A DNA stretch of 58,137 bases, taken from Schizochytrium sp. TIO01. Taxonomy: Eukaryota > Sar > Bigyra > Thraustochytrida > Thraustochytriidae. The position numbers were made by a program, and so were the translations under genes. The notes beneath the pieces were generated by a model. It saw nothing but the letters and a program-made list of their open reading frames with translations, had not been told where the DNA came from and did no database searches. Position 1 is the first letter of the stretch. The number at the start of each line of letters is the position of its first letter. The stretch is from positions 67,501 to 125,637 of the forward strand of contig SMSO01000011.1 in NCBI GenBank assembly GCA_004764695.1. Direction: 5' to 3'. This document shows, piece after piece, positions 1,559-42,345 of the stretch.

Positions 1559-1750
1559 TATTGAAGTAATATACAGCTACTGTCTAACCTAACCTAACCT
1601 AACCAAGCTCTCCTATCCACACATTAACCTGCCTGTATGCAGACCTGAAACCCCGATAACTCATATATCATCCTCTTTCTCTTTCTCCTGAGTTCGTCAT
1701 CCTTGTCAGACTACCTCTCCACGCTTCACAGCACAGGCTACTCTGCAATA
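1559..1750 (+). repeat. 5' LTR (192 bp)
   Basis: Starts TATTGAAGTAATATACAGC and ends CTCTGCAATA. It contains a short telomere-like run of CCTAA units at about 1584-1604. Apart from one such unit it matches 6959-7155. Confidence 0.96.
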
Positions 1751-1763
1751 GGTTATGGGCCCA
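1751..1763 (+). promoter_or_regulatory. Primer binding site: half-tRNA initiator-Met type
   Basis: GGTTATGGGCCCA starts at the first base after the LTR. It is complementary to the anticodon stem-loop of animal-type initiator tRNA-Met (TGGGCCCATAACC), not to a tRNA 3' end. Drosophila copia is known to prime with a 5' half-molecule of tRNA-iMet, so the same mode is inferred here. The site predicts a host initiator tRNA with C rather than U at position 33. Confidence 0.88.
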
Positions 1764-1909
1764 AGATACGCCAGGAAGACTCGAGTGTAACAACTCGTTT
1801 CCTAGACATCTTGAAGATCAGACGAGCTCAACATCAGAGATAGAGTAAACTTTTTCGAAGTAAGACTTCCTACGGAAAACTATACACAGTCCTCAGGAAC
1901 GTCAACACG

Positions 1910-4900
1910 ATGTCTTCCGTGAGAGAAAGCAAGCGGAACAGGACAAACCAAGCGGCGAACTCAGAGAGCCAGAGTGCTCTCTCTGCGGAAGAAGTTCAAA
2001 AGATACAGGAAAAACTAGAAAAGTACAAAAGGCTTTATGAAGAAAGTCAGAGGACGAAGGATCATCTCAAAGACTCCGACTATGATGATGACCTAGAATA
2101 CTTGAATGACGACTCTTCGCGCAAACGCCAGTCTCGCTCTCGCTCCTCATTCAGAACAACGGACCGAACTCGCGACATTCTAATCGATAGAATCAACAAG
2201 ATTCCTACAGGACCTTCTCTCGATTTAATGGGAAGTAACTGGGAGACCTGGTCAGCCAATGTACTGAGATACATGGATCACCATGGATGTACTCCTGAAG
2301 AAATTGAAGCTACCACTGACCCTAAGAGACAACGTCTACTAGACAGTGCACTTTTCACCTTACTCAGCAATCAAGCTGGTCCAAATTTTCAAAAACAACT
2401 ACTACATTATGGTAAATCACACCATGGACATGAAGGACGCGCTGCCTGGGCACAGCTTCAAATTGCATTTAAAAAACAGCCTGGTGAGACCAATCTTGAC
2501 AAGGTCACAGCACTCTTACAATGTCTTCGGAAATACCTTGACAATTCCCTTGAGAGTATGTCAGAAAACGAAATCATGGTATGGTTTATGGAACTATACA
2601 ACACTCAGTGTGAATTGTTAGCTACTGGCATGACGTTACATGATTACATGTTTATCCTTAACCTTTTACCACATATTCGTTACATGGGTCCACAAACAAC
2701 TGCGATCTATGGCAAAGCAATTAAACTCAAAGAGTATAGTAAAGAATTGTTTCAAGAGTTACGAAACACGGAACGGGAAGTTGCACAACAATGCACACTT
2801 AAAGGCAAAAGTGGCTATTCTGCTGGGAACCCTGAACCCACACATCTACAAGCAAACTCCTTTCATCCTTCCCGGAACAAGTTCAAGCGTCAAAAACGAC
2901 CTACATCTCAAAACAACAATTCCGGGGGAGCACAACAACCCTTTCCTCAAAGGAATAAATGCTCACACTGTGGTTATTCAAATCATGCTGAGGCAAACTG
3001 CAAATTCTTGACAGCAATTTGTCCTATCTGTAACCAAGTTGGACACAGACCCTCTGTTTGTCCACGTAGATCATCGCGACAACAAAAGTCGAACAACAAG
3101 CGTCAGCGTCATAATTCAACACCACCGTACAAAGGTCTCGCGTTACACAACGCTCCTTTTGATCAAGGACCTTTTCATGCCAATTTCAGTGTCAACCTTC
3201 TGACAATCAATCATCTAAAATCAGAACCGAAGTCAGCAGAGACAACCTCAGAAGGATTCCTACTAAATTCTGGATGCAATTTGCATGTCACACCAAATCT
3301 TGCATTACTTTCAAACTATGAGAACATTAATCCACTATCAATGGATGCAGCTCAAGGATCCTCAGTTCCGATTTTAGGAAAAGGTACCCTGGAGGCACGA
3401 GTAAGATCAACGTCGGGTAGAATTGTTCCTTTAACACTTACAGTCTACTACGCACCTTCCCTTGCTCACACATTACTGTCGACGTCTATTATGACTCAGC
3501 AAGGATTCTCATTTTTCTTCTCACAAGATAGCGATCGTATGACCACTCCACATGGAGAAGTTATTACACTCGGTCAGCAATCTGACATCCCAATGCTTAT
3601 CCCTGTAAAAGCACCCAAAGTTAACGCTCTGCAACTACGGAAAGCACAAAAACTCAGTTATAAAGGAATAGATTGGCTAGAAGCTCACCTTAAATTAGGT
3701 CACGCTTCAATTCCACGCATAGCATCCTCCATAGGAGTTTCTGCATCACAAATCGACTTCTTATGCATGGATTGTAAAGTTGCCAACTTTGAACGTATTC
3801 CAGTGACAAAAGGACCTCACACACCATATGCTAAGTCTCCTCGACAAGCTGTTACAGCTGATGTGATGGGACCATTCCACGTTCTAGGCATCCCCAACAA
3901 GTTCAAATATGCCATAGTCTACAGAGATCTTTACTCAGACTTTACATATGTTTATCCTATACAATCCACTGATCAAGTGTCCACGACCCTTCGTACCTTT
4001 GCTCAAGCATGGCTCCAAGGTAAAAACACCTCGCGCATCATCATTCGCACAGACGGAGCTAAATATTTTACAGGCGGAGAGTTTGCAAGATCACTTCACA
4101 CCATGCGGTGGGAACATAAACTATCTGCACCACACTCTCATGCTACAAATCCTGCTGAAGGCATCAATCGAGTACTAATGAATGGTCTTCGCTCCAATCT
4201 AAAAACTGCATTACTCGGAGCCAAATATTGGCCCTATGCTTTATCTCATGCTGTACATGTCAAGAATCGCACAGCCTCCAGTCGCAATCGGAAATCTCCG
4301 TACGAACGACATTTTGGCAAAGCACCAGAGTACAGCTACTTCCACATTTTTGGAGCACCATGTGTGTTCAAGAAGTTTCCCATTCCGCAAAAGTTGGGAG
4401 ATAGGGGTGAACTAGGCATTTTCCTTGGATATGCTGATAGTTACACTCATGGAACTGTACATGTCTTACCTAAAGACAAGTCCAACATCCTTCAAACGCG
4501 TGAAGTCAAGATTTTCGATCAAGCATTGACTGAACAAACTCGTCAGCGTGCAATGTCAATAGAAACCGCTCTGACACCTGATCTAATTACTCATTGGACA
4601 CGTGAAGAATCAAATAAACTAATTGCTGGAGAAATGTATCAGGATCTACCTGCTTTATCCTCCACAGCTAATAATACTAAATCTTTCCTCACTCCTAATA
4701 CCCCAGAATATAATGACGACCGTGAATCCAATAGTGAACACGCTAGTCGTCCGGAGGTAAACAATGACGACCGTGAATCCAGTAGCGAACACGCTAGTCG
4801 TCTGGAGGCAAATCATCATGACCGTGAATCCAATAGTGAACACGCTAGTCATCCGAAACTAAATCACAATGACCGTGAATCCAGTAGTGAACACGCTAGT

Positions 4901-6946
4901 CATCCGAAACTAAATCACAATGACCGTGAATCCAGTAGTGAACACGCTAGTCATCCGGAACAAAATCACAATGACCGTGAATCCAATAGTGAACACGTTA
5001 GTCATTCTGAGGTAAATAATGATGACCGTGAATCCAAAAGTGAACATGCTCGTGAAGACATGGAACTAGAACATAGTTCAGTCCATGCACACGATAGTCA
5101 TCGGAGATCCAAAAGGACTCCCAAACCTCATGTACCACTAAATGTTGGTCCCAGTGCCAAAGGCGCTGCAAATAAATACCGATACTATACCAATCGTCTG
5201 AAACGAAAACGTAATATGACGAATACAGAGTTAGATTTCTCGGATATTAATTCTCTATCAAAAGAAGAGAACTTACATGAACTAATCATTCCCACGATAT
5301 ATCCGAGGGAACAGGAATATTTTGCTTTTCTTATTAAAAACAACACAGATAATAAACAATTACCTAAACCGGTCCCAAAACCATGTCCATATGACGACAT
5401 TGTAGTTCCAAACACTTATAAAGAAATGCGGAAACTGCCACAGGCATATCAGCAACTATGGATTGCTGCGATGAATACTGAACATCACAATCTGCAGTCC
5501 GCTGGTGTTCTGGAAACTGTACCCTTACACACTTTACCACAGGGACAGACTGTAATGGGAACTAGATGGGTCTTTACAAAGAAGGCACCACCGGTCAATC
5601 TGTTAAAAGCACGGGTTGTAGTACAAGGCTACAATGAGGCCATTGAACATGTTTATGATATATACTCACCAACAGTTAATGTTGAAAGCATTCGTGTTGC
5701 AACAATTATTGCTTTAACGAGAGGCTATGATGCTATCACCGTTGACGTAACAGCCGCATTTCTAGAAGCACAAATTCCAGATGACGAATTCCTCTACATC
5801 AAAGGCATTGAAGGTCTTGACTTAGCAGAAGGTTATTGTTATCGTCTGCGTAAAAGTCTATATGGACTCAAAAGTGCCCCCCGTAGGTGGATGGATCATT
5901 TGACGGCTATATTAGAAAATTATGGCTTAACACGATCTATAACGGACGCATCACTCTTTATTGGCAAAGATCTTCTAATGACTATCCATGTTGATGACAT
6001 GAGAATCTTTGGCACACCCCAAGCACTAAAAGCGATTGTCAAAGAACTTGAACAAAATGTCGGCGTCAAAGTTAATCGTGAAAAACAATGCCATTATCTT
6101 AGTGATACACATGTCTATGACAAGTCACGAAAGATCTGTACCATCAGCCAACGCGAGTATTGTGGAAAAGCCCTTAGGCGATGTAATATGGAAAACTGCA
6201 ATGGAGCTAAAACTCCATCCATCCTTAAAGAGTTAAGTGATCATCCTGACGACTCTGTGAATGAACACTATCGTCCACTTGTTGGCACTCTAATGTATTT
6301 ACTAAAAACTCGACCTGATATGGCATACACTTTACACCAACTTGCATGCCATGGTCAAAAGAATGGAGCGGAACATATGCAAGCTCTTAAACATGCATTC
6401 CGTTATGTCAAGGCCACAAAGGACAAAGTTCTAACACTCAAAGGCGTGGATTCAGAGGCACAACTTGTTTTGAATGTCTATACAGATGCTTCTTTCAGCA
6501 AGGCACATGACAAACTTCGTCGTAGTGTTACAGGATATGTTGTTATGATAAATGATAGTGCTGTTGTATGGAAAACAACCAAACAGTCTACAGTTGCAAG
6601 AAATACTCACGAAGCTGAACTAATTGCTGCAGTTGCAGGAGTTCTCAGAGCAGAATCCATTCGACAACTTTTAGCAGACATGAACATTTACATCAATGAA
6701 ATACAGGTATATATAGATTGTCAAGCATTAGTAAACACAATCAAAAAGGAAGAAGTTAATGGTACAAATGGTTATCTCGCAGTACAACTTGCAGTACTGA
6801 TTCATCGAAGACAAAACCAATTACTCAAGGTACATCATGTTAAAGGCACAGAAAATATAGCTGATTTACTCACCAAACCACTTGCAGCACCATCTCATTG
6901 GAAACACGCGAGTCGCTTACTTGATGCTTCAGGTGCTGACGCGTGA
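1910..6946 (+). CDS. Copia Gag-Pol polyprotein (1,678 aa)
   Basis: A single ORF from ATG at 1910. Domains in order: a basic, charged Gag N-terminus; two CCHC zinc knuckles at about residues 351-391 (CSHCGYSNHAEANC, then CPICNQVGHRPSVC); a protease motif around 450-456 reading LLNSGC; an integrase zinc-binding region (HLKLGH near 593, CMDC at 619) and catalytic triad D651, D715, E750; a 17-residue tandem repeat spacer (about 936-1050); reverse transcriptase with D1279 in VDVTAAF and the palm motif HVDD at 1360-1363; RNase H with YTDAS near 1526 and a C-terminal ADLLTKPL motif. Two departures from the family are visible: asparagine where the protease normally has its catalytic aspartate (N453), and histidine rather than tyrosine before VDD. 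Either could reduce activity, although nothing else in the ORF looks decayed. Gag and Pol share one frame, so their ratio must be set by proteolysis or splicing. Confidence 0.97.
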   Translation: MSSVRESKRNRTNQAANSESQSALSAEEVQKIQEKLEKYKRLYEESQRTKDHLKDSDYDDDLEYLNDDSSRKRQSRSRSSFRTTDRTRDILIDRINKIPTGPSLDLMGSNWETWSANVLRYMDHHGCTPEEIEATTDPKRQRLLDSALFTLLSNQAGPNFQKQLLHYGKSHHGHEGRAAWAQLQIAFKKQPGETNLDKVTALLQCLRKYLDNSLESMSENEIMVWFMELYNTQCELLATGMTLHDYMFILNLLPHIRYMGPQTTAIYGKAIKLKEYSKELFQELRNTEREVAQQCTLKGKSGYSAGNPEPTHLQANSFHPSRNKFKRQKRPTSQNNNSGGAQQPFPQRNKCSHCGYSNHAEANCKFLTAICPICNQVGHRPSVCPRRSSRQQKSNNKRQRHNSTPPYKGLALHNAPFDQGPFHANFSVNLLTINHLKSEPKSAETTSEGFLLNSGCNLHVTPNLALLSNYENINPLSMDAAQGSSVPILGKGTLEARVRSTSGRIVPLTLTVYYAPSLAHTLLSTSIMTQQGFSFFFSQDSDRMTTPHGEVITLGQQSDIPMLIPVKAPKVNALQLRKAQKLSYKGIDWLEAHLKLGHASIPRIASSIGVSASQIDFLCMDCKVANFERIPVTKGPHTPYAKSPRQAVTADVMGPFHVLGIPNKFKYAIVYRDLYSDFTYVYPIQSTDQVSTTLRTFAQAWLQGKNTSRIIIRTDGAKYFTGGEFARSLHTMRWEHKLSAPHSHATNPAEGINRVLMNGLRSNLKTALLGAKYWPYALSHAVHVKNRTASSRNRKSPYERHFGKAPEYSYFHIFGAPCVFKKFPIPQKLGDRGELGIFLGYADSYTHGTVHVLPKDKSNILQTREVKIFDQALTEQTRQRAMSIETALTPDLITHWTREESNKLIAGEMYQDLPALSSTANNTKSFLTPNTPEYNDDRESNSEHASRPEVNNDDRESSSEHASRLEANHHDRESNSEHASHPKLNHNDRESSSEHASHPKLNHNDRESSSEHASHPEQNHNDRESNSEHVSHSEVNNDDRESKSEHAREDMELEHSSVHAHDSHRRSKRTPKPHVPLNVGPSAKGAANKYRYYTNRLKRKRNMTNTELDFSDINSLSKEENLHELIIPTIYPREQEYFAFLIKNNTDNKQLPKPVPKPCPYDDIVVPNTYKEMRKLPQAYQQLWIAAMNTEHHNLQSAGVLETVPLHTLPQGQTVMGTRWVFTKKAPPVNLLKARVVVQGYNEAIEHVYDIYSPTVNVESIRVATIIALTRGYDAITVDVTAAFLEAQIPDDEFLYIKGIEGLDLAEGYCYRLRKSLYGLKSAPRRWMDHLTAILENYGLTRSITDASLFIGKDLLMTIHVDDMRIFGTPQALKAIVKELEQNVGVKVNREKQCHYLSDTHVYDKSRKICTISQREYCGKALRRCNMENCNGAKTPSILKELSDHPDDSVNEHYRPLVGTLMYLLKTRPDMAYTLHQLACHGQKNGAEHMQALKHAFRYVKATKDKVLTLKGVDSEAQLVLNVYTDASFSKAHDKLRRSVTGYVVMINDSAVVWKTTKQSTVARNTHEAELIAAVAGVLRAESIRQLLADMNIYINEIQVYIDCQALVNTIKKEEVNGTNGYLAVQLAVLIHRRQNQLLKVHHVKGTENIADLLTKPLAAPSHWKHASRLLDASGADA
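4715..5056 (+). repeat. 51-bp coding minisatellite between integrase and RT
   Basis: Seven copies, the last partial, of a 51-bp in-frame unit encode a 17-residue acidic, serine-rich repeat of the form DRESxSEHASxPExNN. It lies in the poorly conserved linker between integrase and reverse transcriptase, so it is probably a disordered spacer. Confidence 0.93.
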
Positions 6947-6951
6947 TTTGC

Positions 6952-6958
6952 GGGGGAG
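6952..6958 (+). promoter_or_regulatory. Polypurine tract
   Basis: GGGGGAG directly abuts the 3' LTR, six bases after the Gag-Pol stop. Its position and composition fit the plus-strand priming site of LTR elements. Confidence 0.88.
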
Positions 6959-7155
6959 TATTGAAGTAATATACAGCTACTGTCTAACCTAACCTAACCT
7001 AACCTAACCAAGCTCTCCTATCCACACATTAACCTGCCTGTATGCAGACCTGAAACCCCGATAACTCATATATCATCCTCTTTCTCTTTCTCCTGAGTTC
7101 GTCATCCTTGTCAGACTACCTCTCCACGCTTCACAGCACAGGCTACTCTGCAATA
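6959..7155 (+). repeat. 3' LTR (197 bp)
   Basis: Same sequence as the 5' LTR with one additional CCTAA unit in the run near the start. It ends CTGCAATA and is followed by the GTATT duplication. Confidence 0.96.
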
Positions 7156-7160
7156 GTATT
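7156..7160. repeat. 3' target-site duplication (GTATT)
   Basis: Partner of 1554-1558. Confidence 0.93.
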
Positions 7161-7315: not shown

Positions 7316-10300
7316 TTATTCAAAAATATAAGGGCCTAGACATCCCAATGCTTCACTAAAGGCAACATTTGCAGCTTTCAACATATCAAGCTCTACTTTC
7401 TGCGCAGCAATATAGTCCTCTTTTGAAATCAGCATACCAGACCTGTTCGCAAGCCGACCTTGGGCAAGAAGACTATGCTGCACTGAAAACGGCAGAGAAA
7501 GTGCATCGTTTACAACATGTATACAACGAAGCTCACGAGATACCTGTATAAGACTTGTCCTTCTTGTCTTTGCAGAACAAATTTGCTTATTCAATTCGAG
7601 CTCCTCGCGCATTTCAATCATCTCCCAGGTCATTCTAGTACCAGTAAAACCCAAATGACATCAACTCCGTTCGTCAGTTTACAATTTTTTATTTTTTTTG
7701 TCATTAAAAGGTACCCACAGTACTGCCAGTACAGTTTCATTTATTCTCTGATGTTATCATGCTCTCTGTTAGATCCACACTCAACCAAACATTCAACTCC
7801 ACAACAAACTTGCAATGGCGCGAAGAAAAACATCGGCAAAATAACACACTAGACAACCCACGAAGCAACGAACCAACCAACTAACCAAGCCTCGTGTACA
7901 AACGAGTCCATAAACTACGGTGTTACTAAGTTAACTTACGATAGTGATGTCAGCGACCGGTTCTCTTTCAGCGCCGCAGCCACTGCCTTGGCGCCCTCTG
8001 AGCCGATTTTGTTGTAGGAAAGACTGTCGATTTGATTGAATGATGGCAAGCAATACATTACACGTTACATATTACAATAGATGCACGCATGCATGCATGG
8101 ACGTGAGTGATCTAGGTTGACTTTCAGGATTTATCTTTGTTGTGTTGTCATTTTGCTCTTTGTTCGATGGATGTATACTCACTCAAACAGACAACCCATC
8201 CATCCATCAAACAAACAAGCGATTGCATAAACTTGCAAAACAACACCGACCCACCCACCGAACAACAAACCAATCATCATGTACAAACAAGTCCACGAGC
8301 TGGGGTGTTGCGTAGACAACTTACTCAAGTAATGTCAGCGACCGGTTCTCTTTCAGCGCCGCAGCCACTGCCTTGGCGCCCTCGTCGCCGATCTGGTTGC
8401 GTTCAAGACTGTCGATTTGATTGAATGATGGCAAGCAATACATTACACGTTACATATTACAATAGATGCACGCATGCATGCATGGACGTGAGTGATCTAG
8501 GTTGGCTTTCAGCACTTATCTTTGTTGTGTTGTCATTTTGCTCTTTGTTCGATGGATGTATACTCACTCAAACAGACAACCCATCCATCCATCAAACAAA
8601 CAAGCGATTGCATAAACTTGCAAAACAACACCGACCCACCCACCAAACAACAAACCAAGCATCATGTACAAACAAGTTCACGAGCTGCGGTGTTGCGTAG
8701 ACAACTTACTCAAGTGATGTCAGCGACAGGTTCTCTTTCAGCGCCGCAGCCACTGCCTTGGCGCCCTCGTCGCCGATCTGGTTGTCAGAAACACTGTCGA
8801 TTTGATTGAATGATGGCAAGCAATACATTACACGTTACATATTACAATAGATGCACGCATGCATGCATGGACGTGAGTGATCTAGGTTGGCTTTCAGCAC
8901 TTATCTTTGTTGTGTTGTCATTTTGCTCTTTGTTCGATGGATGTATACTCACTCAAACAGACAACTCATCCATCCATCAAACAAACAAGCGATTGCATAA
9001 ACTTGCAAAACAACACCGACCCACCCACCGAACAACAAACCAAGCATCATGTACACACAAGCCCATGAGCTGCGGTGTTGCGTAGACAACTTACTCAAGT
9101 GATGTCAGCGCCCGGTTCTCTTTCAGCGCCGCACCCACTGCCTTGGCGCCCTCGTCGCCGATATTGTTGTAGGAAAGACTGTCGATTTGATTGAATGATG
9201 GCAAGCAATACATTACACGTTACATATTACAATAGATGCACGCATGCATGCATGGACGTGAGTGATCTAGGTTGGCTTTCAGCATTTATCTTTGTTGTGT
9301 TGTCATTTTGCTCTTTGTTCGATGGATGTATACTCACTCAAACAGACAACTCATCCATCCATCAAACAAACAAGCCATTGCATAAACTTGCAAAACAAGA
9401 CCGACCCACCCACCAAACAACAAACCAAAAATCATGTACAGACAAGTCCACGAGCTGCGGTGTTGCGTAGACAACTTACGATAGTGATGTCAGCGACCGG
9501 TTCTCTTTCAGCGCCGCACCCACTGCCTTGGCGCCCTCGTCGCCGATATCGTTGCCAGCAAGACTGTCGATTTGATTGAATGATGGCAAGCAATACATTA
9601 CACGTTACACATTACAATAGATGCACGCATGCATGCATGGACGTGAGTGATCTAGGTTGGCTTTCAGCATTTAGCTTTCTTGTGTTGTCATTTTGCTCTT
9701 TGTTCGATGGATGTATACTCACTCAAACAGACAACCCATCCATCCATCAAACAAACAAGCCATTGCATAAACTTGCAAAACAACACCGACCCACCCACCA
9801 AACAACAAACCAAAAATCATGTACAAACAAGTCCACGAGCTGCGGTGTTGCGTAGACAACTTACGATAGTGATGTCAGCGACCGGTTCTCTTTCAGCGCC
9901 GAAGCCACTGCCTTGGCGCCCTCGTCGCCGATTTTGTTCCTTCTAAAACTGTCGATTCGATTGAATGATGGCAAGCAATACATTACACGTTACATATTAC
10001 AATAGATGTACGCATGCATGCATGGACGTGAGTGATCTAGGTTGGCTTTCAGCATTTAGCTTTGTTGTGTTGTCATTTTGCTCTTTGTTCGATGGATGTA
10101 TACTCACTCAAACAGACAACTTATCCATCCATCAAACAAACAAGCGATTGCATAAACTTGCAAAACAAGACCGACCCACCCACCAAACGACAAACCAAGC
10201 ATCATGTACAAACAAGTCCACGAGCTGCGGTGTTGCGTAGACAACTTACTATAGTGATGTCAGCGACCGGTTCTCTTTCAGCGCCGCAGCCACTGCCTTG

Positions 10301-12387
10301 GCGCCCTCTGAGCCGATATAGTTGCGTTCAAGACTGTCGATTTGATTGAATGATGGCAAGCAATACATTACATTGTATTGGATAGAACCATGCATGCAGG
10401 AACATTAGTGATCTAGGTTGGCTTTGAGGATTTCATTTTTGTTGTGTTGTCATTTTGCTCTTTGTTCGGTGGATGCATACTCAGGCAAACAGACAACTTA
10501 TCCATCCATCAAACAAATAACTGATCGCACAAACTTGCAAAGCGACACCGACCAAAATAACAACCAACGAAGCAAGCATCATGTACACACAAGCCCATGA
10601 GCTGTGGTATTGCTTAGACAACTTACTTGAGTGATGTCAGCGACCAGTTGTCTTTCAACGCTGCAGCCACTGCCTTGGCGCCCTCGTCGCCGATTTTATT
10701 ATCCCGAAGGCTGTTAATTTGATTGAATAATGGCAAGCAATACATTGTATTGCATTAGATGCGTGCATGGGACGTGAGTGATCTAGGTTGGCTTTCAGGA
10801 TTTCATCTTGGTTCGATGGTTGCATACTCACTCAAATAGACAAATTATCCATCCATCAAACAAACAAGTGATTGCATAAACTTGCAAAACAACACCGACC
10901 AAATCAGCACACCAACAAAGCAAGCATCATGTACAAACAAACCCATGACCTGCGGTGTTGCGTAGACAACTTACACAAGTGATGTCAGCGACCGGTTCTC
11001 TTTCAGCGCCGCAGCCACTGCCTTGGCGCCCTCTGAGCCGATATTGTTTTTACTAAAACTGTCGATTTGATTGAATGATGGCAAGCAATACATTACACGT
11101 TACATATTACAATAGATGCACGCATGCATGCATGGACGTGAGTGATCTAGGTTGGCTTTCAGGATTTAGCTTTGTTGTGTTGTCATTTTGCTCTTTGTTC
11201 GATAAATGTATACTCCCTCAAACAGACAACTCATCCATCCATCAAACAAACAAGCCATTGCATATACTTGCAAAACAACACCGACCCACCCACCAAACAA
11301 CAAACCAAAAATCATGTACAGACAAGTCCACGAGCTGCGGTGTTGCGTAGACAACTTACACAAGTGATGTCAGCGACCGGTTCTCTTTCAGCGCCGCACC
11401 CACTGCCTTGGCGCCCTCGTCGCCGATATCGTTGCCATAAAGACTGTCGATTTGATTGAATGATGGCAAGCAATACATTACACGTTACATATTACAATAG
11501 ATGCACGCATGCATGCATGGACGTGAGTGATCTAGGTTGGCTTTCAGGATTCATCTTTGTTGTGTTGCCATTTTGCTCTTTGTTCGATGGATGTGTACTC
11601 ACTCAAACAGACAACTCATCCATCCATCAAACAAACAAGCCATTGCATAAACTTGCAAAACAAGACCGACCCACCCACCAAACAACAAACCAAACATCAT
11701 GTACAAACAAACCCATGACCTGCGGTGTTGCGTAGACAACTTACTCAAGTGATGTCAGCGACTGGTTCTCTTTCAGCGCCGCACCCACTGCCTTGCCGCC
11801 CTCGTCGCCGATTTTGTTGCCTATAAGACTGTCGATTTGATTGAATGATGGCAATCAATACATTCCACGTTACATATTACAATAGATGCACGCATGCATG
11901 CATGGACGTGAGTGATCTAGCCTGACTTTCAGCATTTATCTTTGTTGTGTTGTCATTTTGCTCTTTGTTCGATGGATGTATACTCACTCAAACAGACAAC
12001 TCATCCATCCATCAAACAAACAAGCGATTGCATAAACTTGCAAAACAAGACCGACCCACCCACCAAACAGCAAACCAAACATCATGTACAAACAAGTCCA
12101 CGAGCTGCGGTGTTGCGTAGACAACTTACTATAGTGATGTCAGCGACCGGTTCTCTTTCAGTGCCGAAGCCACTGCCTTGGCGCCCTCTGAGCCGATTTT
12201 GTTGTAGGAAAGACTATCGATTTGATTGAATGATGGCAAGCAATACATTACACGTTACATATTACAATAGATGCAATAGATGCAATAAATGCAGGCATGC
12301 ATGCATGGACGTGAGTGATCTAGGTTGGCTTTCAGGATTTATCTTTGTTGTCTTGTCATTTTCCTCTTTGATTAATGCATAATCAAT

Positions 12388-12428
<41 letters not shown>

Positions 12429-12505
12429 GTGTTAACTTACCTCAATGTTGTAGCGCCATTCTGAAGCTTTTCAAGAGCAGCGAGAACACGTGGATGGTCC
12501 GACAT
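7316..12505 (-). CDS. 14-exon leucine-rich-repeat protein, RNI/NLR-type LRRs on amplified 84-nt exons
   Basis: Inferred gene structure in transcript order: exon 1 12505-12441; LRR exons 12213-12130, 11828-11745, 11443-11360, 11058-10975, 10710-10627, 10333-10250, 9948-9865, 9563-9480, 9178-9095, 8793-8710, 8408-8325, 8023-7940; last exon 7634-7316. Every LRR exon is 84 nt and starts after CAG (TAG once). Every exon from 1 to 13 is followed by a GTAAGT donor, and all introns are phase 2. The spliced length is 1,392 nt, or 463 codons plus stop, in frame. Each cassette encodes the 28-residue pattern LTSLxLxxNxIGxEGAKAV followed by AAALKENRS, the ribonuclease-inhibitor/NLR class of LRR. The N-terminal exon (MSDHPRVLAALEKL...) acts as a cap. 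The last exon joins as SMTWEMIEMREELELNKQ, a plausible terminal cap, then a helical tail of about 85 residues. No NACHT, TIR or membrane segment is visible, so a cytosolic binding protein is likely, ligand unknown. The exon chain is strongly supported; the start (ATG at 12505) and the final acceptor are less certain. Confidence 0.88.
7940..12213 (-). repeat. 385-bp exon-intron tandem array (12 units)
   Basis: Exon starts are spaced exactly 385 bp apart over most of the array (7940, 8325, 8710, 9095, 9480, 9865, 10250). Two intervals are shorter, 377 bp (10250 to 10627) and 348 bp (10627 to 10975), and then 385 bp resumes to 12130. Each unit is 84 bp of exon plus about 301 bp of intron. The introns carry a GCATGCATGCATG block, a TGTTTGTTTG-type stretch on the coding strand and no clear polypyrimidine tract before the acceptor. 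The many similar 88-95-residue plus-strand ORFs in this interval are intron artefacts. Confidence 0.96.
12390..12428. repeat. (AAGC)n microsatellite in intron 1 of the LRR gene
   Basis: About ten perfect tetranucleotide units lie just inside the 5' splice site of the first intron, next to the exon-1 donor at 12440. Confidence 0.9.
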
Positions 12506-16761: not shown

Positions 16762-17283
16762 AGGTGCTCCCAGAAGTCAAATAGTAAAATTTATGTAGAA
16801 TCCAATTATCCCGAAGCTTTGTTAAGTATCCCCGGTACGACCGTTTCACGATACAAGTTTGAAACTAATTAAGGATAACATGGTGTTTTTGTCTACATAA
16901 AACGTAGAAAAAAGAGCTATTTTTAATCAGACTTAGACCGATTGATTTCGTTCAAAGCTAGAATCGAAAATTCCAATTATTCATCATCACCTTTATTTTA
17001 GAGCTCGGGGCTTGAAGATGATGTTCTTCAAGGCTAGAACTAGCAATCTGACACAGAAATTTCAAGAATCTGCGCCTGAAAATCAGAAATTTGTGGTGTA
17101 TAGATCTGGCTACCTTTTTGTAACCACCTTTTTACGATATTCAGGGCTATTCTATTCGAACTTGCAAATTGGGGACCCTGAGTGTTGTTACAGGGTTCAA
17201 TAATCTCATTCTCAGACCCTAAAACAGTCAAAACTCCAAAATAAGAACACCGAAAATAAAACACAAAAATTAAAAACCCGCAA
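16762..17283. other. Non-coding, no feature recognised
   Basis: AT-rich, with only short ORFs. It borders the first tRNA gene on that gene's 3' side; the minus-strand sequence just after the tRNA is GGGTTTTTAATTTTTG, supplying T runs suitable as an RNA polymerase III terminator. Confidence 0.6.
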
Positions 17284-17354
17284 GCTTCGACCGGGAATCG
17301 AACCCGGGACCTTGAGATTACGAATCACACGCACTACCGCTGTGCTATCGAAGC
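17284..17354 (-). tRNA. tRNA-Thr (anticodon CGT), copy 1
   Basis: On the minus strand this folds into a clean cloverleaf: 7-bp acceptor GCTTCGA/TCGAAGC, D-arm GCAC...GTGC, anticodon loop TTCGTAA giving CGT, and T-arm CCGGG TTCGATT CCCGG. It has no intron and no encoded CCA; the base following the acceptor is T. The anticodon stem has one T-T mismatch at its centre. T runs follow within about 10 bases. Reading the anticodon as TCG (Arg) would put T at position 37 and weaken the stem, so Thr is preferred. Confidence 0.9.
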
Positions 17355-17672
17355 AGAATGGTGGCACCATAGCACGAAAATAGAAACGTCATCAAAAACC
17401 AAAACGTTCAGGAGTGACAGCAAAATGTTTAATCGATGTTTCCAGTAATTCAAAAGCGAGGCTCTAGTAGTTCCAATGTCAACCTCAAATCGAGCAAAGT
17501 ACTTTCTGTATTTAAACACTAAGGTAGGTAGCAAACCCTTTCAAATTCAAGGTTGGCTGCAGTTTTTACTTGGGCCAAAACAAAGTTAGATTATGAGCTT
17601 ATTTAGGGTGAAAAAATTCCAATAATGAGGTGAGGTATTAAAGTCAAACTTTTTATTTTAAAAAAAATAAAA

Positions 17673-17743
17673 GCTTCGACCGGGAATCGAACCCGGGACC
17701 TTGAGATTACGAATCACACGCACTGCCGCTGTGCTATCGAAGC
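17673..17743 (-). tRNA. tRNA-Thr (anticodon CGT), copy 2
   Basis: Identical to the copy at 17284-17354 except for one D-loop base. It has the same anticodon loop TTCGTAA and the same T discriminator, followed on the minus strand by TTTTATTTTTTTT, a strong Pol III terminator. The sequences between the copies are unrelated by eye, so only the gene itself appears duplicated. Confidence 0.9.
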
Positions 17744-18103
17744 TTCTTTTTGTTGGATGTAACTGAAGAATGTTGTGGATTAATATAAATATTCTGTTAG
17801 TATTAAGCTCACCCACGAAGACAGAGAAGAAGAGAAGAGAAATAGAGAATGAAAAGGGGTAAAAACAAAATGAAGAAAAAGTCCGTTATGAGATACGTCT
17901 TGTTCAGAGAATGGATGCCAATTAGTCTCAACATTATTGTGTGCAAAGATAAGTAGATGCTTGCTACCTGAAGAACAGCGTTCAAGGTACGAGTTTATGG
18001 AACTGCGTTACGTAGAAGAGTGGACAAACTCATAAAACAGGCTATGAGGTTCTGGCGTAAGGCTGAGGTTACATTCTTGAAATTGTAAAGAGCTCCTTCT
18101 ACG
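17744..18103. other. Intergenic, 5' region of the CFAP69 gene
   Basis: Purine-rich stretch (GAAGAGAAGAGA type) about 17820-17860. No ORF of note. The downstream part is presumed promoter and 5' UTR of the gene at 18104. Confidence 0.55.
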
Positions 18104-30195: not shown

Positions 30196-30315
30196 TAGTA
30201 CCCTCGAAGTAATCCGGCCTAAATAAATACAGGCAGACAGCTTTTGATCAAAGTGTAGTACCCTCGAAGTAATCCGGCCTAAATAAATACAGGCAGACAG
30301 CTTTTGATCAAAGTG
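30196..30315. repeat. Perfect 60-bp tandem duplication
   Basis: Two identical adjacent 60-bp copies (30196-30255 and 30256-30315), each beginning TAGTACCCTCGAAGTAATCC. The perfect identity suggests a recent duplication. Confidence 0.97.
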
Positions 30316-38406: not shown

Positions 38407-40944
38407 ACTTATCCTTTCTCTCTGCATTTACCTCCACTGCAATTTCGTTTAGAATATCATCCCGAGCTTCACTGCCTTACTTTTATTGAACATTAAATAG
38501 CTGGCTTATGGGCATTTATCTCCTCACAGCAGATGGTTAAAATTAAAGTCAAGATATAGCCTTGTGTTGAGAGTTAGACACTTATTTTAATGTCCTCCTG
38601 AACAAGAACGCGATTATCCACAAACTTCATTGAATTGTGTGCAAAGATTGACCCAATGGCATCATTGAAGAGTTGAATAGGTGTGCATTGTTGACCTTTT
38701 AAAATATATCATAATTTTATATATTGAGAGCTCAAGTATATTTTCCGATCTCTTCAGGTCGATATTTTAAAGGTGTACCGTAGTATGCACTATCTCTTCT
38801 TGATCTTTTGGTACCCACATCTCAGTTTTTTTTTCTTTCCAAATCCCCCCCCCCCCAAAAAAAAAAACAAGCACCTGCTTAGCACGGCTGTTGCACTATC
38901 TTCTATGAACCTCAACTTGTTAATCTACGCGCTGCCGATCTTCATGCTGAGTCTCACAGTCGTTTCCTACCTTATTTTCGTGAGTGCTTTCATACTATGT
39001 CCTGCATGAGGTTTGTGGAAACGGAAGAAAGACTGTTCATAGCCTCAGCAATTCTGACGCCGAGCAAATGCTGCGTCCTCGAAGTTTCGTTGTTGAAGGC
39101 CTTGGACACGCAGGTGGCACTTCCAGATGAGGCGACGCAACATGTTGTAAACATCCCATGAGCTGGAACCCTCATTTCTGCTTGCCGAAACGGCCTGTTA
39201 CAGAAAAACAATGGTGAATTGGCGAGAGCCACTGATCTATATTTCGCACGAGTGGAATTCAGAGTCGTCTTCACTTTGCTCAGGCCGATCATTGTTCAAC
39301 GCGACCCGCGAATCAATCGCATAATATACAATCGCCACAACGCGAAGTGCGCTAAGGAACGTGCGACGACCGTGACTGCTCACGCGAGGTCTCTTCGAGA
39401 TCGTTTCTCCGTTGTCAATCAGAACCGCCATCTTCCTCAATCTTAAGATCTGTAACTGATCCACTGATAGTTAGTTCATGGTACTTGTTTTTTCCTTTAA
39501 AAGAATAAATAAATCCTCTCTCTTGAAACAATCAAACAAACATCAGCGGCCAAAGCCAAGAGCTCCTTCCGCACGTCTCCTCAAGAGGCACATTCTTGCA
39601 AGACGCCTCGGTTTAGTCGTCCTCCACTGCATCTTCACCACCGCCGTCGCAACCACCACCATCACCACCACCGTGACGAATGGTGATACCTTTGGGGCAT
39701 CCAGCTGGTGTGTGCCAGCCAAGGCATCCCTTTGCTGTCCTCGATGGCAACAAACAAGATTATGGCTGACAACTGAGTGACCTTCAATTTTGCCATCGCT
39801 TTGTACATCGCCTGGCAAGCCGCAGTCCGCAGAGTCCGAGTCTCGTGGCCCGAATCAAGAGCTCTCTACGTCCATCCATCCATTTACCCCCTTGTAATGT
39901 CAATCTTCCTTGGTACTCCCATAGTTCCTCACTTTATAGGGGCAATTCCTTTGCACATGCTGCTGGAAAACTCCAATGCCGCTGCAAGTGGTCTCCCGCG
40001 AGCGATGAACTGCATCGTAGACCACCTCGCTCGACACCATCTTGCACGCGACAGCAGTTTTAGAGACAACACTTGCATTTGGACTTCTTGACCCAAGAGT
40101 GCTTCATGTCGCCTCCTGGGAGCTGATTGATTGCCTGCCCTTCTATCTATGGCTATAGCCATAGATAGCCATAGATAGATAGCTACTTCATCATCAGATG
40201 GGTGAGTCCTTAAGAAGTAGTTGTGATTCATAGATTCACTGTAAATTCAGCGGCATGCCTCAGATCGCTGTCGTCATCGCGTGTCCTCCAGACGGCACAG
40301 AAACCACCCATGCACAGCACCGTGGCCCTTCCCACGCTCCACGCGAACCCCAGCTGCCGCCTCCTTCAAGACCTCTGCGCTTCTCAACCCTCTGCGCTTC
40401 TCATCAAAATTAGGCGAGGAGACAGCGCCGGCGCACCGAGAGCTGCGAAGACTGACAAGAGTGAGTTCAAGATGGTAGAAGAAGAACTTGAAGTACCAGA
40501 CTGAGGAAAGCGGTAGCAGTAGGCTAGGTGGAGCTAGTGGAATAGCGGATCTGACTTGAGCTTGAGAAGAAGTTTGGAGCCACCCTGAACAGAAGGCAAA
40601 GCCAAAAGACGCGGCAGGTCAGCGTTCTTGGGCGGGATCTTGACTTGGGAATACTTGCACAAGAGCTTGTGCAGGGGAGGTTGCTGATAACTGGGTTGGT
40701 TTCCTCATGGTAAATTTGTAGAGAGTACACTTAGGTTTAATAATTTATAGGAAGCTAGGTGCCTAGAACGTGGGTAAACTCGACATAACAATTCACACCA
40801 ACAACCATTACCACTTTGGCAGTGCCAGTCAACAGAGGGGCAGGCAAATCGTGAAACGGCATTGAGGTCATTGGGAGAGGCGTTTGGCAACGTGCTTTGG
40901 TGAGCGTGGTGCTTCTTACCTCTCTTTGGGGACGTTCCTAGTCG
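38407..40944. other. Intergenic, no gene recognised
   Basis: AT-rich 3' flank of GT90, a C/A homopolymer pair near 38846-38870, several short overlapping ORFs without domains (39000-40500), and a perfect palindrome at 40143-40168. The last few hundred bases presumably contain the promoter of the fluoride exporter. Confidence 0.6.
40143..40168. repeat. 26-bp perfect palindrome
   Basis: The 26 bases from CTATCTATGGC to GCCATAGATAG equal their own reverse complement with no spacer, and a partial further copy (CATAGATAGATAG) follows at once. It could extrude as a cruciform or bind a dimeric protein. Confidence 0.95.
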
Positions 40945-42345
40945 ATGCTGGATTCGCAGAGCTCATCCCTTGAGAACCGCAGCACTCCTTCGGCACACAA
41001 CCCTCCAAACAGACAAGCAGACGCGAGCTCTCAGCCAGGTCCCAAGGGGATCACCTGCAAGCCGCAAAGCGGGTCCATGCGCAACCACGGTTCTCTCGAG
41101 GATGGAGGCGCTCTCGAAGAGCGTCCTGAAGCTGTTATTAACGGCAACAACGATAACAGCAGCATCAACAACAACAACAACATGAACCACGGAAATGGAT
41201 CCAACTATGTCCAAAGTAACATGGCCAATCCGTCTTCGCCTACGAACCACCTCAAGCCTATGCTGCGGCAGCACTCGACGTCTCGAAGCTCTGCTCGTGA
41301 GGAGGAAATTGTCCTCGATGACGAGCTGCTTGCCACTGCGGGCCGTGAAGAGGCCAGTGAGTATGAAGCTGCTGAGCGTGAGGCCCCGGAGTACCGCGAC
41401 ATTCCATGGTTCTACGAGACTCTCTCAACTCTTGCTCTCATTGCAGTAGGTTCTATAGCAGGTGTAGCTCTTCGAGTGGCACTTTCGCTCACATCTGTGG
41501 ATCCGTTCTCGGACTATATCTTCGCAAACTTCGTGGGCACTGCGTGGCTCGCGTATTGGAGTTATTTCAAACATGTATTGTGGACTCCACTTTTCGTAGG
41601 TGTTGGTACTGGATTTTGTGGTTCTCTCACATCGTTCTCCAGCTGGCAAGAAGCAGGGGCGGTTCTTGTCGGCCCTACAGTTCTAGGGATTGATCGTCGT
41701 GAAAAGGCCTTCGTGTGGTTTGAGGTCCAGCTTGCGGGTATCGCGGTGGACTTGATTGCTTATGACTTTGGCCGCCACATCGGCAAAACTCACCCTTTTA
41801 AGCCGCCTAAGAATGAACCGGATACCATCGTGTGCGCCCCGAGAGTTCTCTACCACGCTGGTAGTATCACGTTCGCGGTGCTGATTGGATTACTCGTGGC
41901 ACTTCTTGCAGGGTATTTCCATACAGAGCTCCTCTTCGCGTTGTGCTGGGGTCCGTTTGGTGCGTGGTCGCGATACTTTCTCGGTCGTCTTTTTAACAGC
42001 AAGCTTGAAGGTTTTCCGCTCGGTACTTTCATCGCTAATGTGTTCGCATCAGCATTGCTTGCAATGGCTTACGTGCTTGGAATTTCTGTCAGTCGTGCGG
42101 ACACAGTTCAATGTGAAGCATTACAGGGCTTTATCACAGGATACTGTGGTAGTCTTTCTACAGTGTCCACTTTTATTGCTGAGCTCAAGGGTCTCGGCCG
42201 CAAAGATGCCTATGTGTATGGTTTTGCATCAATGATTGTAGCCCAAATATGCATGATCATCATCATCGGCGGCTACACTTGGTCTGCCGCTGATCTCACA
42301 GATTTTGAGAACGGTGACTCGTGTGTCTCAGTTTATTATCCTTGA
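40945..42345 (+). CDS. Two-domain fluoride exporter (FEX/CrcB family)
   Basis: 466 residues, ATG at 40945. The first 150 residues are hydrophilic and Asn-rich. The rest holds two CrcB-like membrane repeats. Repeat 1: SIAGVALRVAL, ANFVGTAWLAYW, GVGTGFCGSLTSFSSWQ. Repeat 2: GPFGAWSRYFLGRLFN, GTFIANVFASALLAMAY, GFITGYCGSLSTVSTFIAE. About eight or nine membrane segments are expected. The paired G(F/Y)CGSLxxxS motifs and the pore asparagines (FAN, FIAN) are those of the fluoride channel family. Eukaryotic FEX proteins fuse two bacterial Fluc-type halves in the plasma membrane to keep cytosolic fluoride low. The long disordered N-terminus may be regulatory. Confidence 0.94.
   Translation: MLDSQSSSLENRSTPSAHNPPNRQADASSQPGPKGITCKPQSGSMRNHGSLEDGGALEERPEAVINGNNDNSSINNNNNMNHGNGSNYVQSNMANPSSPTNHLKPMLRQHSTSRSSAREEEIVLDDELLATAGREEASEYEAAEREAPEYRDIPWFYETLSTLALIAVGSIAGVALRVALSLTSVDPFSDYIFANFVGTAWLAYWSYFKHVLWTPLFVGVGTGFCGSLTSFSSWQEAGAVLVGPTVLGIDRREKAFVWFEVQLAGIAVDLIAYDFGRHIGKTHPFKPPKNEPDTIVCAPRVLYHAGSITFAVLIGLLVALLAGYFHTELLFALCWGPFGAWSRYFLGRLFNSKLEGFPLGTFIANVFASALLAMAYVLGISVSRADTVQCEALQGFITGYCGSLSTVSTFIAELKGLGRKDAYVYGFASMIVAQICMIIIIGGYTWSAADLTDFENGDSCVSVYYP

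What the first reader, a model, noticed from the sequence alone, without database searches (positions are those of the whole stretch)
7316..12505. Hidden 14-exon LRR gene built from amplified exon-intron cassettes
Twelve 84-nt exons each code exactly one 28-residue RNI/NLR-type leucine-rich repeat. All introns are phase 2 with GTAAGT donors, and exon plus intron form a 385-bp tandem unit. Caps at both ends join in frame (65 + 12x84 + 319 nt = 464 codons including stop). ORF callers instead report a family of repeated plus-strand ORFs that are intron artefacts.
Basis: partly seen in the sequence, partly recalled or inferred. Interest (0 to 1): 0.92.

Follow-up and report, generated by a model that had tools for sequence, protein, structure and literature searches.

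The report
Hypervariable leucine-rich-repeat exon-cassette gene family
A genome, probably of a marine protist, carries dozens of genes built from near-identical exon-intron cassettes, each exon coding one leucine-rich repeat, in which most variation sits in the few residues expected to touch a binding partner, so they look like a fast-evolving repertoire of recognition proteins.

Summary
Confirmed. The minus strand at 12505-7316 holds a 14-exon gene: 65 nt + 12 x 84 nt + 319 nt = 1392 nt, 463 codons plus stop, all 13 donors GTAAGT, all introns phase 2. Pfam finds LRR_6 (E 8.5e-94); the nearest solved chains are ribonuclease-inhibitor/NLR-type solenoids.
It is one of a family: 54 matches to the C-terminal exon and 516 to a unit pattern in the 64-Mb genome. 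All 18 fetched loci with both ends in view give an open model with 5-20 repeats, two of them imperfect.
In 234 exons from 21 loci, variation is concentrated in four codons, the exposed x's of L-x-L-x-x-N-x: 2.2-3.6 bits, against under 0.8 in all others but two. Units whose introns differ by 0.5-1% already differ at 56% of nine bases in those codons.
Best reading: recognition proteins, probably cytosolic and often near contig ends. Cassettes recombine and homogenise across genes while diversifying selection keeps the binding face diverse. Nearest in kind: brown-algal ROCO LRR exons, Tetrahymena 90-bp LRR exons. Expression, ligand and function are untested.

The parts
12441..12505 (-). Exon 1 (65 nt): ATG and N-cap MSDHPRVLAALEKLQNGATTL, donor GTAAGT
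   Evidence: N exon with conserved ATG in all 18 loci where one was found
12214..12440 (-). Intron 1 (227 nt), ends TAG; holds a 4-base microsatellite (12384-12428)
12130..12213 (-). LRR exon 1 (84 nt) SLSYNKIG...
11745..11828 (-). LRR exon 2 (84 nt) YLIGNKIG...
11360..11443 (-). LRR exon 3 (84 nt) DLYGNDIG...
10975..11058 (-). LRR exon 4 (84 nt) VFSKNNIG...
10627..10710 (-). LRR exon 5 (84 nt) VLRDNKIG...; preceded by a 264-nt intron
10250..10333 (-). LRR exon 6 (84 nt) NLERNYIG...; preceded by a 293-nt intron
9865..9948 (-). LRR exon 7 (84 nt) YFRRNKIG...
9480..9563 (-). LRR exon 8 (84 nt) SLAGNDIG...
9095..9178 (-). LRR exon 9 (84 nt) SLSYNNIG...
8710..8793 (-). LRR exon 10 (84 nt) DVSDNQIG...
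8325..8408 (-). LRR exon 11 (84 nt) DLERNQIG...
7940..8023 (-). LRR exon 12 (84 nt) DLSYNKIG...
7635..7939 (-). Last intron (305 nt), donor GTAAGT, acceptor CTAG; not of the cassette type
7316..7634 (-). Last exon (319 nt incl. stop): C-terminal cap of about 105 aa, no Pfam match
7872..12370 (-). Tandem array of 385-bp exon-intron cassettes (11.8 copies)

Best explanation
A member of a large family of stand-alone LRR proteins, often near contig ends and probably cytosolic, that work as recognition proteins. Each gene is an N-cap exon, a run of interchangeable one-repeat cassettes and a C-cap exon. Shown by sequence: the gene models; the family; concentration of variation in four codons (L-x-L-x-x-N-x); mixing of cassettes across genes; arrays that change in length or content while C-caps or flanks stay nearly the same. 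Inferred: because every cassette is symmetric (phase 2 to phase 2) and introns are near identical, unequal crossing-over and gene conversion add, drop and shuffle whole repeats without breaking the frame, and homogenise introns and the repeat scaffold. Diversifying selection preserves or renews variety at the exposed residues of the concave beta-sheet, which bind varied ligands, most plausibly proteins of viruses or other parasites, or self/non-self markers. The ligand step is the least supported.
For: Entropy: codons 2, 3, 5 and the junction codon 3.64, 3.34, 3.02 and 2.21 bits; elsewhere only codons 8 (1.65) and 15 (0.94) exceed 0.8. Exon remainder 0.16 and intron 0.22 bits per base. Unit pairs with 0.5-1% intron divergence (n=105) differ at 55.7% of nine variable bases; pairs with 20-40% (n=95) at 64%. 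Paralogues L020/L022: 3' flank 20/1653 and introns plus flanks 75/4078 differ, variable bases (12 per exon) 49/108. The window, L009, L010 and L011 have C-cap dS of 0-0.045 to the window but 12, 11, 16 and 5 repeats. Recombination: among 13 biallelic sites, 77 of 78 pairs show all four combinations (count derived from binned fractions) and r2 falls from 0.31 (4-10 nt) to about 0.1 (40-250 nt) and 0.008 (beyond). Intron divergence within genes 0.059, between genes 0.067. C-cap mean dS 0.205 against cassette-intron difference 0.066, so cassettes are homogenised. 15 of 25 mappable C-caps lie within 100 kb of a contig end, 4.3% expected, P 7e-15. Highest 19-residue Kyte-Doolittle mean 1.55 in 18 models.
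Against: No RNA, protein or ligand data. Nei-Gojobori pN and pS are about equal at two of the variable codons (codon 2: 0.718/0.724; codon 5: 0.517/0.530; codon 3: 0.615/0.392), so plain dN/dS does not show selection. Same-residue synonymous differences are also raised there, 0.153 against 0.037 at conserved two-fold codons; the rise is in Q/K/E codons (0.286), while codons ending in T/C sit at 0.052 against 0.065. Exon and intron are not fully decoupled: below 0.5% intron divergence (n=13) variable bases differ by only 0.22 and 7 pairs are identical; 87 pairs with identical variable bases have median intron divergence 0.033 against 0.050 overall. All-four-combination pairs can also come from repeat mutation. 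Codon 8 (Ser 106, Asp 103) is dimorphic without an obvious binding role. Contig ends are not proven telomeres and some contigs end inside these arrays; 10 of 25 mappable copies are not near an end. No NB, kinase or signalling domain says how binding would be read out.
Confidence: 0.6

Rival explanations
1. Targeted hypermutation of the exposed codons (a mutator or templated process), rather than selection on ordinary mutation and recombination.
For: Variable bases are close to saturation (up to 1.92 of 2 bits) and pS is as high as pN at codons 2 and 5. The synonymous third base of Leu27 is also highly variable (1.58 bits) and tied to the next residue: C with Asn 69/75, A with Ser 58/60, T with Asp 39/44.
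Against: Recent duplicates show no change at variable bases: 0/132 (L030/L031) and 0/84 (L017/L018) at 0.1-0.2% intron/flank divergence; this is weak, since by my arithmetic even an 18-fold faster rate would predict only a few changes. Stronger: neighbouring synonymous sites (third bases of codons 1, 4, 6) stay nearly fixed; codon 5 uses AAT 50, GAT 41, TAT 13 and never AAC, GAC or TAC, though CAC 5 and CAT 3 both occur; exon-end alleles are a few discrete triplets (CAA 70, ATC 58, TGA 39, TGT 16, ATA 7; 20 others, of 210).
Confidence: 0.12
2. Relaxed tandem-repeat drift: a young repeat family homogenised by unequal exchange, the variable codons merely being unconstrained, with no selection for diversity.
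For: Homogenisation and array turnover are strong. Exposed LRR positions are structurally tolerant (general knowledge). C-cap dN/dS is about 0.8 on means of 0.165 and 0.205.
Against: Unconstrained codons should vary like introns (mean pairwise 0.066), not at 0.60. The same homogenisation would remove neutral variety from the codons too. No exon has an in-frame stop, 0 of 234.
Confidence: 0.15
3. Structural or ciliary LRR proteins that happen to be multi-copy.
For: The best PDB matches are MOP84A (9e5c) and LRR chains of 9y6s (what those complexes are was not looked up); LRRC34, DRC5 and radial spoke protein 15 also match. A cilia-associated ARM-repeat protein gene lies in the window.
Against: A fixed structural partner would not favour variety on the concave face, dozens of paralogues and array turnover. 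NLRP14 and ribonuclease inhibitor match in the same list, which reflects the shared repeat type.
Confidence: 0.08
4. Assembly or repeat artefact: cassettes mis-assembled, or the gene part of a pseudogene array.
For: Some contigs end inside arrays. One unit in each of L012, L015 and L021 lacks clean borders and one of L015 is 87 nt. The L011 C exon is broken into two frames.
Against: 0 of 234 exons with an in-frame stop; open models in all 18 loci with both ends; N and C exons conserved.
Confidence: 0.03

Closest known systems
Brown-algal LRR-ROC-COR (ROCO) genes with shuffled LRR exons (PMC11378527, abstract and passages seen; Zambounis et al. 2012 only as cited there)
   Same: One LRR per exon, phase 2, exon shuffling, four positively selected sites on the concave face, proposed recognition role; LRR-only sequences with shuffling exons also reported there
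   Different: 72-bp exons, 23-residue repeats, followed by ROC-COR. Here 84-nt exons, 28-residue RI-type repeats, stand-alone protein with a different C-cap
[quoted passage not shown]
   Same: Tandem arrays of exactly equal LRR exons, extreme phase-2 bias, youngest genes subtelomeric and pericentromeric, proposed unequal crossing-over and shuffling
   Different: [quoted passage not shown] Here 84-nt exons, and no match to the window's copia element in 24 fetched loci, one of them partly masked; other element types were not searched
Human NOD/NLRC LRR exons (PMC6642158, abstract and passages seen)
   Same: One 28-aa LRR per exon in most NOD and NLRC genes, border at the same point within the beta-sheet, frame-preserving
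   Different: Those genes carry a NACHT domain (recalled); the passages seen do not describe a recombining hypervariable cassette family
Lamprey/hagfish variable lymphocyte receptors (recalled, not tested)
   Same: Diverse LRR repertoires with variable concave positions
   Different: Assembled somatically from germline cassettes, extracellular; nothing here shows somatic assembly

Membership tests
Ribonuclease-inhibitor-type LRR solenoid (Pfam LRR_6) | 28-29-residue repeats with LxxLxLxxN(x)I and a helical second half | tested here: met
   LRR_6 E 8.5e-94 with 12 stretches; ribonuclease inhibitor 1dfj E 6e-33; conserved L, N, I positions. The helix itself was not modelled
NLR (NACHT/NB-ARC-LRR) | Nucleotide-binding domain in the same protein | tested here: not met
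   No NACHT or NB-ARC match in the 463-aa model. Seven NACHT matches elsewhere in the genome, five over the cut-off, lie in frames of 1238-2238 aa; none coincides with a listed C-cap match
Brown-algal-type ROCO LRR genes | ROC-COR domains after 72-bp LRR exons | tested here: not met
   Exons are 84 nt; no ROC or COR in the model, no Pfam match in the C-cap. The genome was not searched for ROC or COR
Tetrahymena-type 90-bp LRR exon genes | Exactly 90-bp LRR exons with phase-2 introns | tested here: not met
   Phase 2 met; length 84 nt in 234 of 238 units
Exon-cassette LRR recognition repertoire (works like) | Variation concentrated at exposed concave positions, with cassette shuffling between genes | tested here: met
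   the concave placing rests on the LRR motif, not on a model
Exon-cassette LRR recognition repertoire (works like) | Binds variable ligands and triggers a defence or recognition response | not testable with these tools
   needs expression and binding data
VLR-like somatic assembly | Different assembled sequences in different cells of one clone | not testable with these tools
   one assembly only

The most novel reading that the evidence does not exclude
A single-celled heterotroph keeps a repertoire of about 500 interchangeable LRR cassettes in dozens of genes as an antibody-like recognition system, and a dedicated short-tract exchange process reassorts exposed codons between cassettes while wiping out most other variation, perhaps within clonal populations.
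Probability: 0.12. Interest if true: 0.93.

Novelty: new variant of a known kind. Interest (0 to 1): 0.66.

Why it matters
It adds a case, not found in my searches, of one-exon-one-repeat LRR repertoires in what is probably a thraustochytrid, which belongs to the stramenopiles (PMC12258536, abstract listing) like brown algae (recalled). The cassettes carry an internal yardstick, the near-identical introns, so the balance of gene conversion against diversifying selection can be measured directly. It makes testable whether single-celled stramenopiles keep shuffled recognition repertoires and what those recognise. It also warns annotators: ORF callers see intron artefacts instead of the gene.

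Tried and rejected
Plus-strand ORFs as genes: rejected, no sign of coding constraint. Hypermutation: disfavoured by synonymous neighbours and codon use, not excluded. Spread by the neighbouring copia element: 0 of 24 fetched loci, one partly masked, hold a match. Viral origin of the C-cap: 33 pattern stretches in viral contigs, none a relative. NACHT link: seven matches, none at a listed C-cap, though one lies about 7 kb from a distant, broken C-cap match. Domain name for the C-cap: none. A C-cap match in a 1763-aa 'open frame' proved to lie beside a masked run of N and was dropped. SSU rRNA searches gave no answer; the host was instead inferred from a PfaA-type polyunsaturated fatty acid synthase and from size and GC like Aurantiochytrium sp. 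TWZ-97, whose longest contig (4.1 Mb) is shorter than one here (9.8 Mb), so it is not that assembly. Genus and strain remain a guess.

Rows dropped before counts: 4 of 238 units not 84 nt or unresolved; 2 of 210 introns longer than 344 nt; L029-L031 are not in the 234-exon set, 14 weak C-cap matches and the second piece of one split match were left out, leaving 39 of 54, then 7 on contigs of unknown length and 7 on contigs under 200 kb. The expected fraction uses only the 12 long contigs of known length. In one search the C-exon acceptor was chosen as the first in-phase AG that leaves the frame open. One search's counts are lower bounds by its own note. The notebook entry quotes the 71-of-74 stop count as evidence; it is not.
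Full report
THE OBSERVATION. Reading the minus strand, the window holds an ATG at 12505, a 65-nt first exon, twelve 84-nt exons and a 319-nt last exon ending in TAA at 7316; the sum is 1392 nt with no internal stop. All 13 donors are GTAAGTT; 11 acceptors are CAG, the first and last are TAG. The array has period 385 with 11.8 copies at 7872-12370; donor spacing is 385 in 9 of 11 steps. The product matches LRR_6 at E 8.5e-94. Of 82 PDB sequences matched (60 shown), the first names are MOP84A, ribonuclease-inhibitor-like and LRR proteins of 9y6s, and NLRP14; ribonuclease inhibitor follows. Plus-strand ORFs of 91 and 95 aa recur over the introns but show no sign of coding constraint.

THE FAMILY. 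The window is C10:67501-125637 of a 64.06-Mb, 37-contig genome. Among the rows listed for the 3' part of the gene, 26 span nearly all of the 1185-base query, the window included. The 105-aa C-cap finds 54 matches, 39 of them above 90 bits. A 30-place unit pattern with up to 3 mismatches finds 516 sites; the reversed control finds none. I fetched 20 loci and later three more. With the window, 21 loci gave 238 units: 234 of exactly 84 nt, one of 87, three unresolved. Of 23 loci with a C-cap (these 21 plus L030, L031), 18 also contain the N exon, and all 18 give an open model of 243-688 aa with 5-20 repeats. Two are imperfect: one unresolved unit was left out in L012, and the L011 C exon is broken into two frames and read with a shorter tail. 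The L028 acceptor is uncertain, and acceptors were chosen to leave the frame open. The N exon has its ATG and a GT at the same place in all 18 (three have a GTAGGT donor). A distant subfamily at L029 (C-cap 40% identical) also has 84-nt LRR exons, but divergent ones.

WHERE THE VARIATION IS. Amino-acid entropy is 3.64, 3.34 and 3.02 bits at codons 2, 3 and 5, and 2.21 at the codon split by the intron. Codon 8 is a Ser/Asp dimorphism (1.65) and codon 15 an Ala/Gly one (0.94); the rest lie below 0.8. In LRR terms the four are the x positions of L-x-L-x-x-N-x, the exposed face of the beta-strand and following loop (recalled; in brown-algal ROCO proteins four positively selected sites were placed on the concave side, PMC11378527). 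Mean pairwise difference over 208 units is 0.60 at nine variable bases, 0.045 in the rest of the exon and 0.066 in the preceding intron. The 0.60 hardly depends on intron divergence from 0.5% upward: 0.557 in the 0.5-1% bin, 0.643 in the 20-40% bin. Below 0.5% (13 pairs) it drops to 0.22, with 7 pairs identical, five of them in the near-identical duplicates L017/L018. One pair with identical introns from different genes differs at 7 of 9 variable bases.

HOW IT CHANGES. The most recent duplicates are unchanged at variable bases: 0/132 and 0/84 (12 bases per exon). At about 1.8% intron/flank divergence they have moved: 8/36 in L017/L021 and 49/108 in L020/L022, where the rest of the exon differs at 28/621 and the 3' flank at 20 of 1653. 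In L020/L022 some units look moved (LEFNEIG is unit 4 in one and unit 6 in the other), others look changed by single steps. Four genes whose C-caps differ from the window's by dS of 0-0.045 or are the window's own have 12, 11, 16 and 5 repeats. Among 13 biallelic sites, nearly all pairs show all four combinations, and association falls with distance (the closest pairs, r2 0.86, are neighbouring bases within codon 8). Codons 2 and 3 travel together (z 20), less so with codon 5 (z 6 and 4.5) and codon 8. No association above z 3 was seen with the exon end or with the junction bases; weaker ones (z 3.0-4.6) link codons across the intron to codons 2 and 8 of the preceding unit. Of 99 codon-2/3 blocks (158 expected on random pairing), 31 occur in more than one gene and cover 152 of 234 units. 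Of 60 units with a unique block, 53 are one base from another block and 44 reuse two codons seen elsewhere. Intron divergence is nearly the same within and between genes (0.059, 0.067) and well below C-cap dS (mean 0.205 over 253 pairs, any with undefined dS left out). So the cassettes behave as one exchanging pool. Pairs with identical variable bases still have somewhat closer introns (median 0.033 against 0.050). Exon ends come as discrete triplets in which the synonymous base of Leu27 goes with the next residue, which suggests old alleles passed around rather than fresh point mutation at that site.

SELECTION OR MUTATION. Against simple hypermutation: near-fixed synonymous neighbours and codon 5 with AAT/GAT/TAT 104 against AAC/GAC/TAC 0; the unchanged duplicates point the same way but only weakly. 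Against calling the case closed: Nei-Gojobori pN and pS are similar at codons 2 and 5, and synonymous differences among same-residue codons are 0.153 against 0.037 elsewhere, the rise being in Q/K/E codons. My reading is diversifying selection acting on alleles that recombination keeps reshuffling, with homogenisation of the rest; this is inference.

PLACE AND HOST. On contigs of 1 Mb or more with known length, 15 of 25 copies lie within 100 kb of an end. No telomere repeat was seen at the four contig-end stretches printed, and some contigs stop inside arrays. The genome has a PfaA-type synthase, 1157 bits with its neighbours in frame against a cut-off of 1010; none of the 14 control genomes passes the cut-off. 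By established knowledge (recalled) this points to a thraustochytrid. Size and window GC resemble Aurantiochytrium sp. TWZ-97 at 62.5 Mb and 45% (PMC12258536, passages).

FUNCTION. The 18 models have no strongly hydrophobic 19-residue stretch (maximum 1.55). The window product has no Pfam match of clear meaning beyond LRRs: other families reach low E-values on stretches inside the repeats, such as SpoU_sub_bind at 2e-14, which I read as spurious, and the C-cap matches none. I infer soluble intracellular proteins that bind varied targets. Recognition of parasites or of self/non-self is the likeliest pressure, but nothing here tests it.

KNOWN OR NEW. One LRR per exon is known in human NOD/NLRC genes (PMC6642158, passages), brown algae (phase 2; PMC11378527, passages) and, as equal phase-2 exons, Tetrahymena (PMC6564038, passages). 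A search for Aurantiochytrium with leucine-rich repeat gave three papers and one for Labyrinthulomycetes with LRR gave none; a looser search was too broad to show absence. The one relevant thraustochytrid paper says LRR proteins were relatively few in Thraustochytrium aureum ssp. strugatskii (PMC8917795, one passage). New here, as far as those searches go: 84-nt RI-type stand-alone arrays in a probable thraustochytrid, and the sharp contrast between homogenised introns and near-saturated contact codons.

Noticed in passing
window 1559-7156: A Ty1/copia-like element: open 1700-aa frame at 1844-6946 (+) with RVT_2 and integrase core matches (the latter below its cut-off), flanked by 97.5% identical direct repeats of about 198 bases (1559-1751 and 6959-7156), ending about 160 bases beyond the LRR gene's stop.
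   Followed up: partly
window 17283-17744: Two tRNA-Thr(CGT) predictions about 390 bases apart on the minus strand.
   Followed up: no
window 30196-30315: A perfect tandem duplication of a 60-bp unit.
   Followed up: no
window 40942-42345: A protein with two CrcB-like (fluoride exporter type) stretches; neighbours include a PLP-dependent enzyme with CBS domain, a lactonase-type propeller, a GT90 glycosyltransferase, a polyprenyl synthetase and DHDPS.
   Followed up: no
codon 8 of the LRR exons in 21 loci, including the window: A near 50:50 dimorphism Ser (TCA) / Asp (GAC), differing at all three bases with few intermediates, suggests two old cassette lineages.
   Followed up: partly
C-cap exons, 23 loci: The C-cap evolves with dN close to dS (means 0.165 and 0.205) while staying open in all but L011.
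   Followed up: partly
G000:C30 near 8.39 Mb: A NACHT match in a 1238-aa frame lies about 7 kb from a distant C-cap match that has a stop.
   Followed up: no
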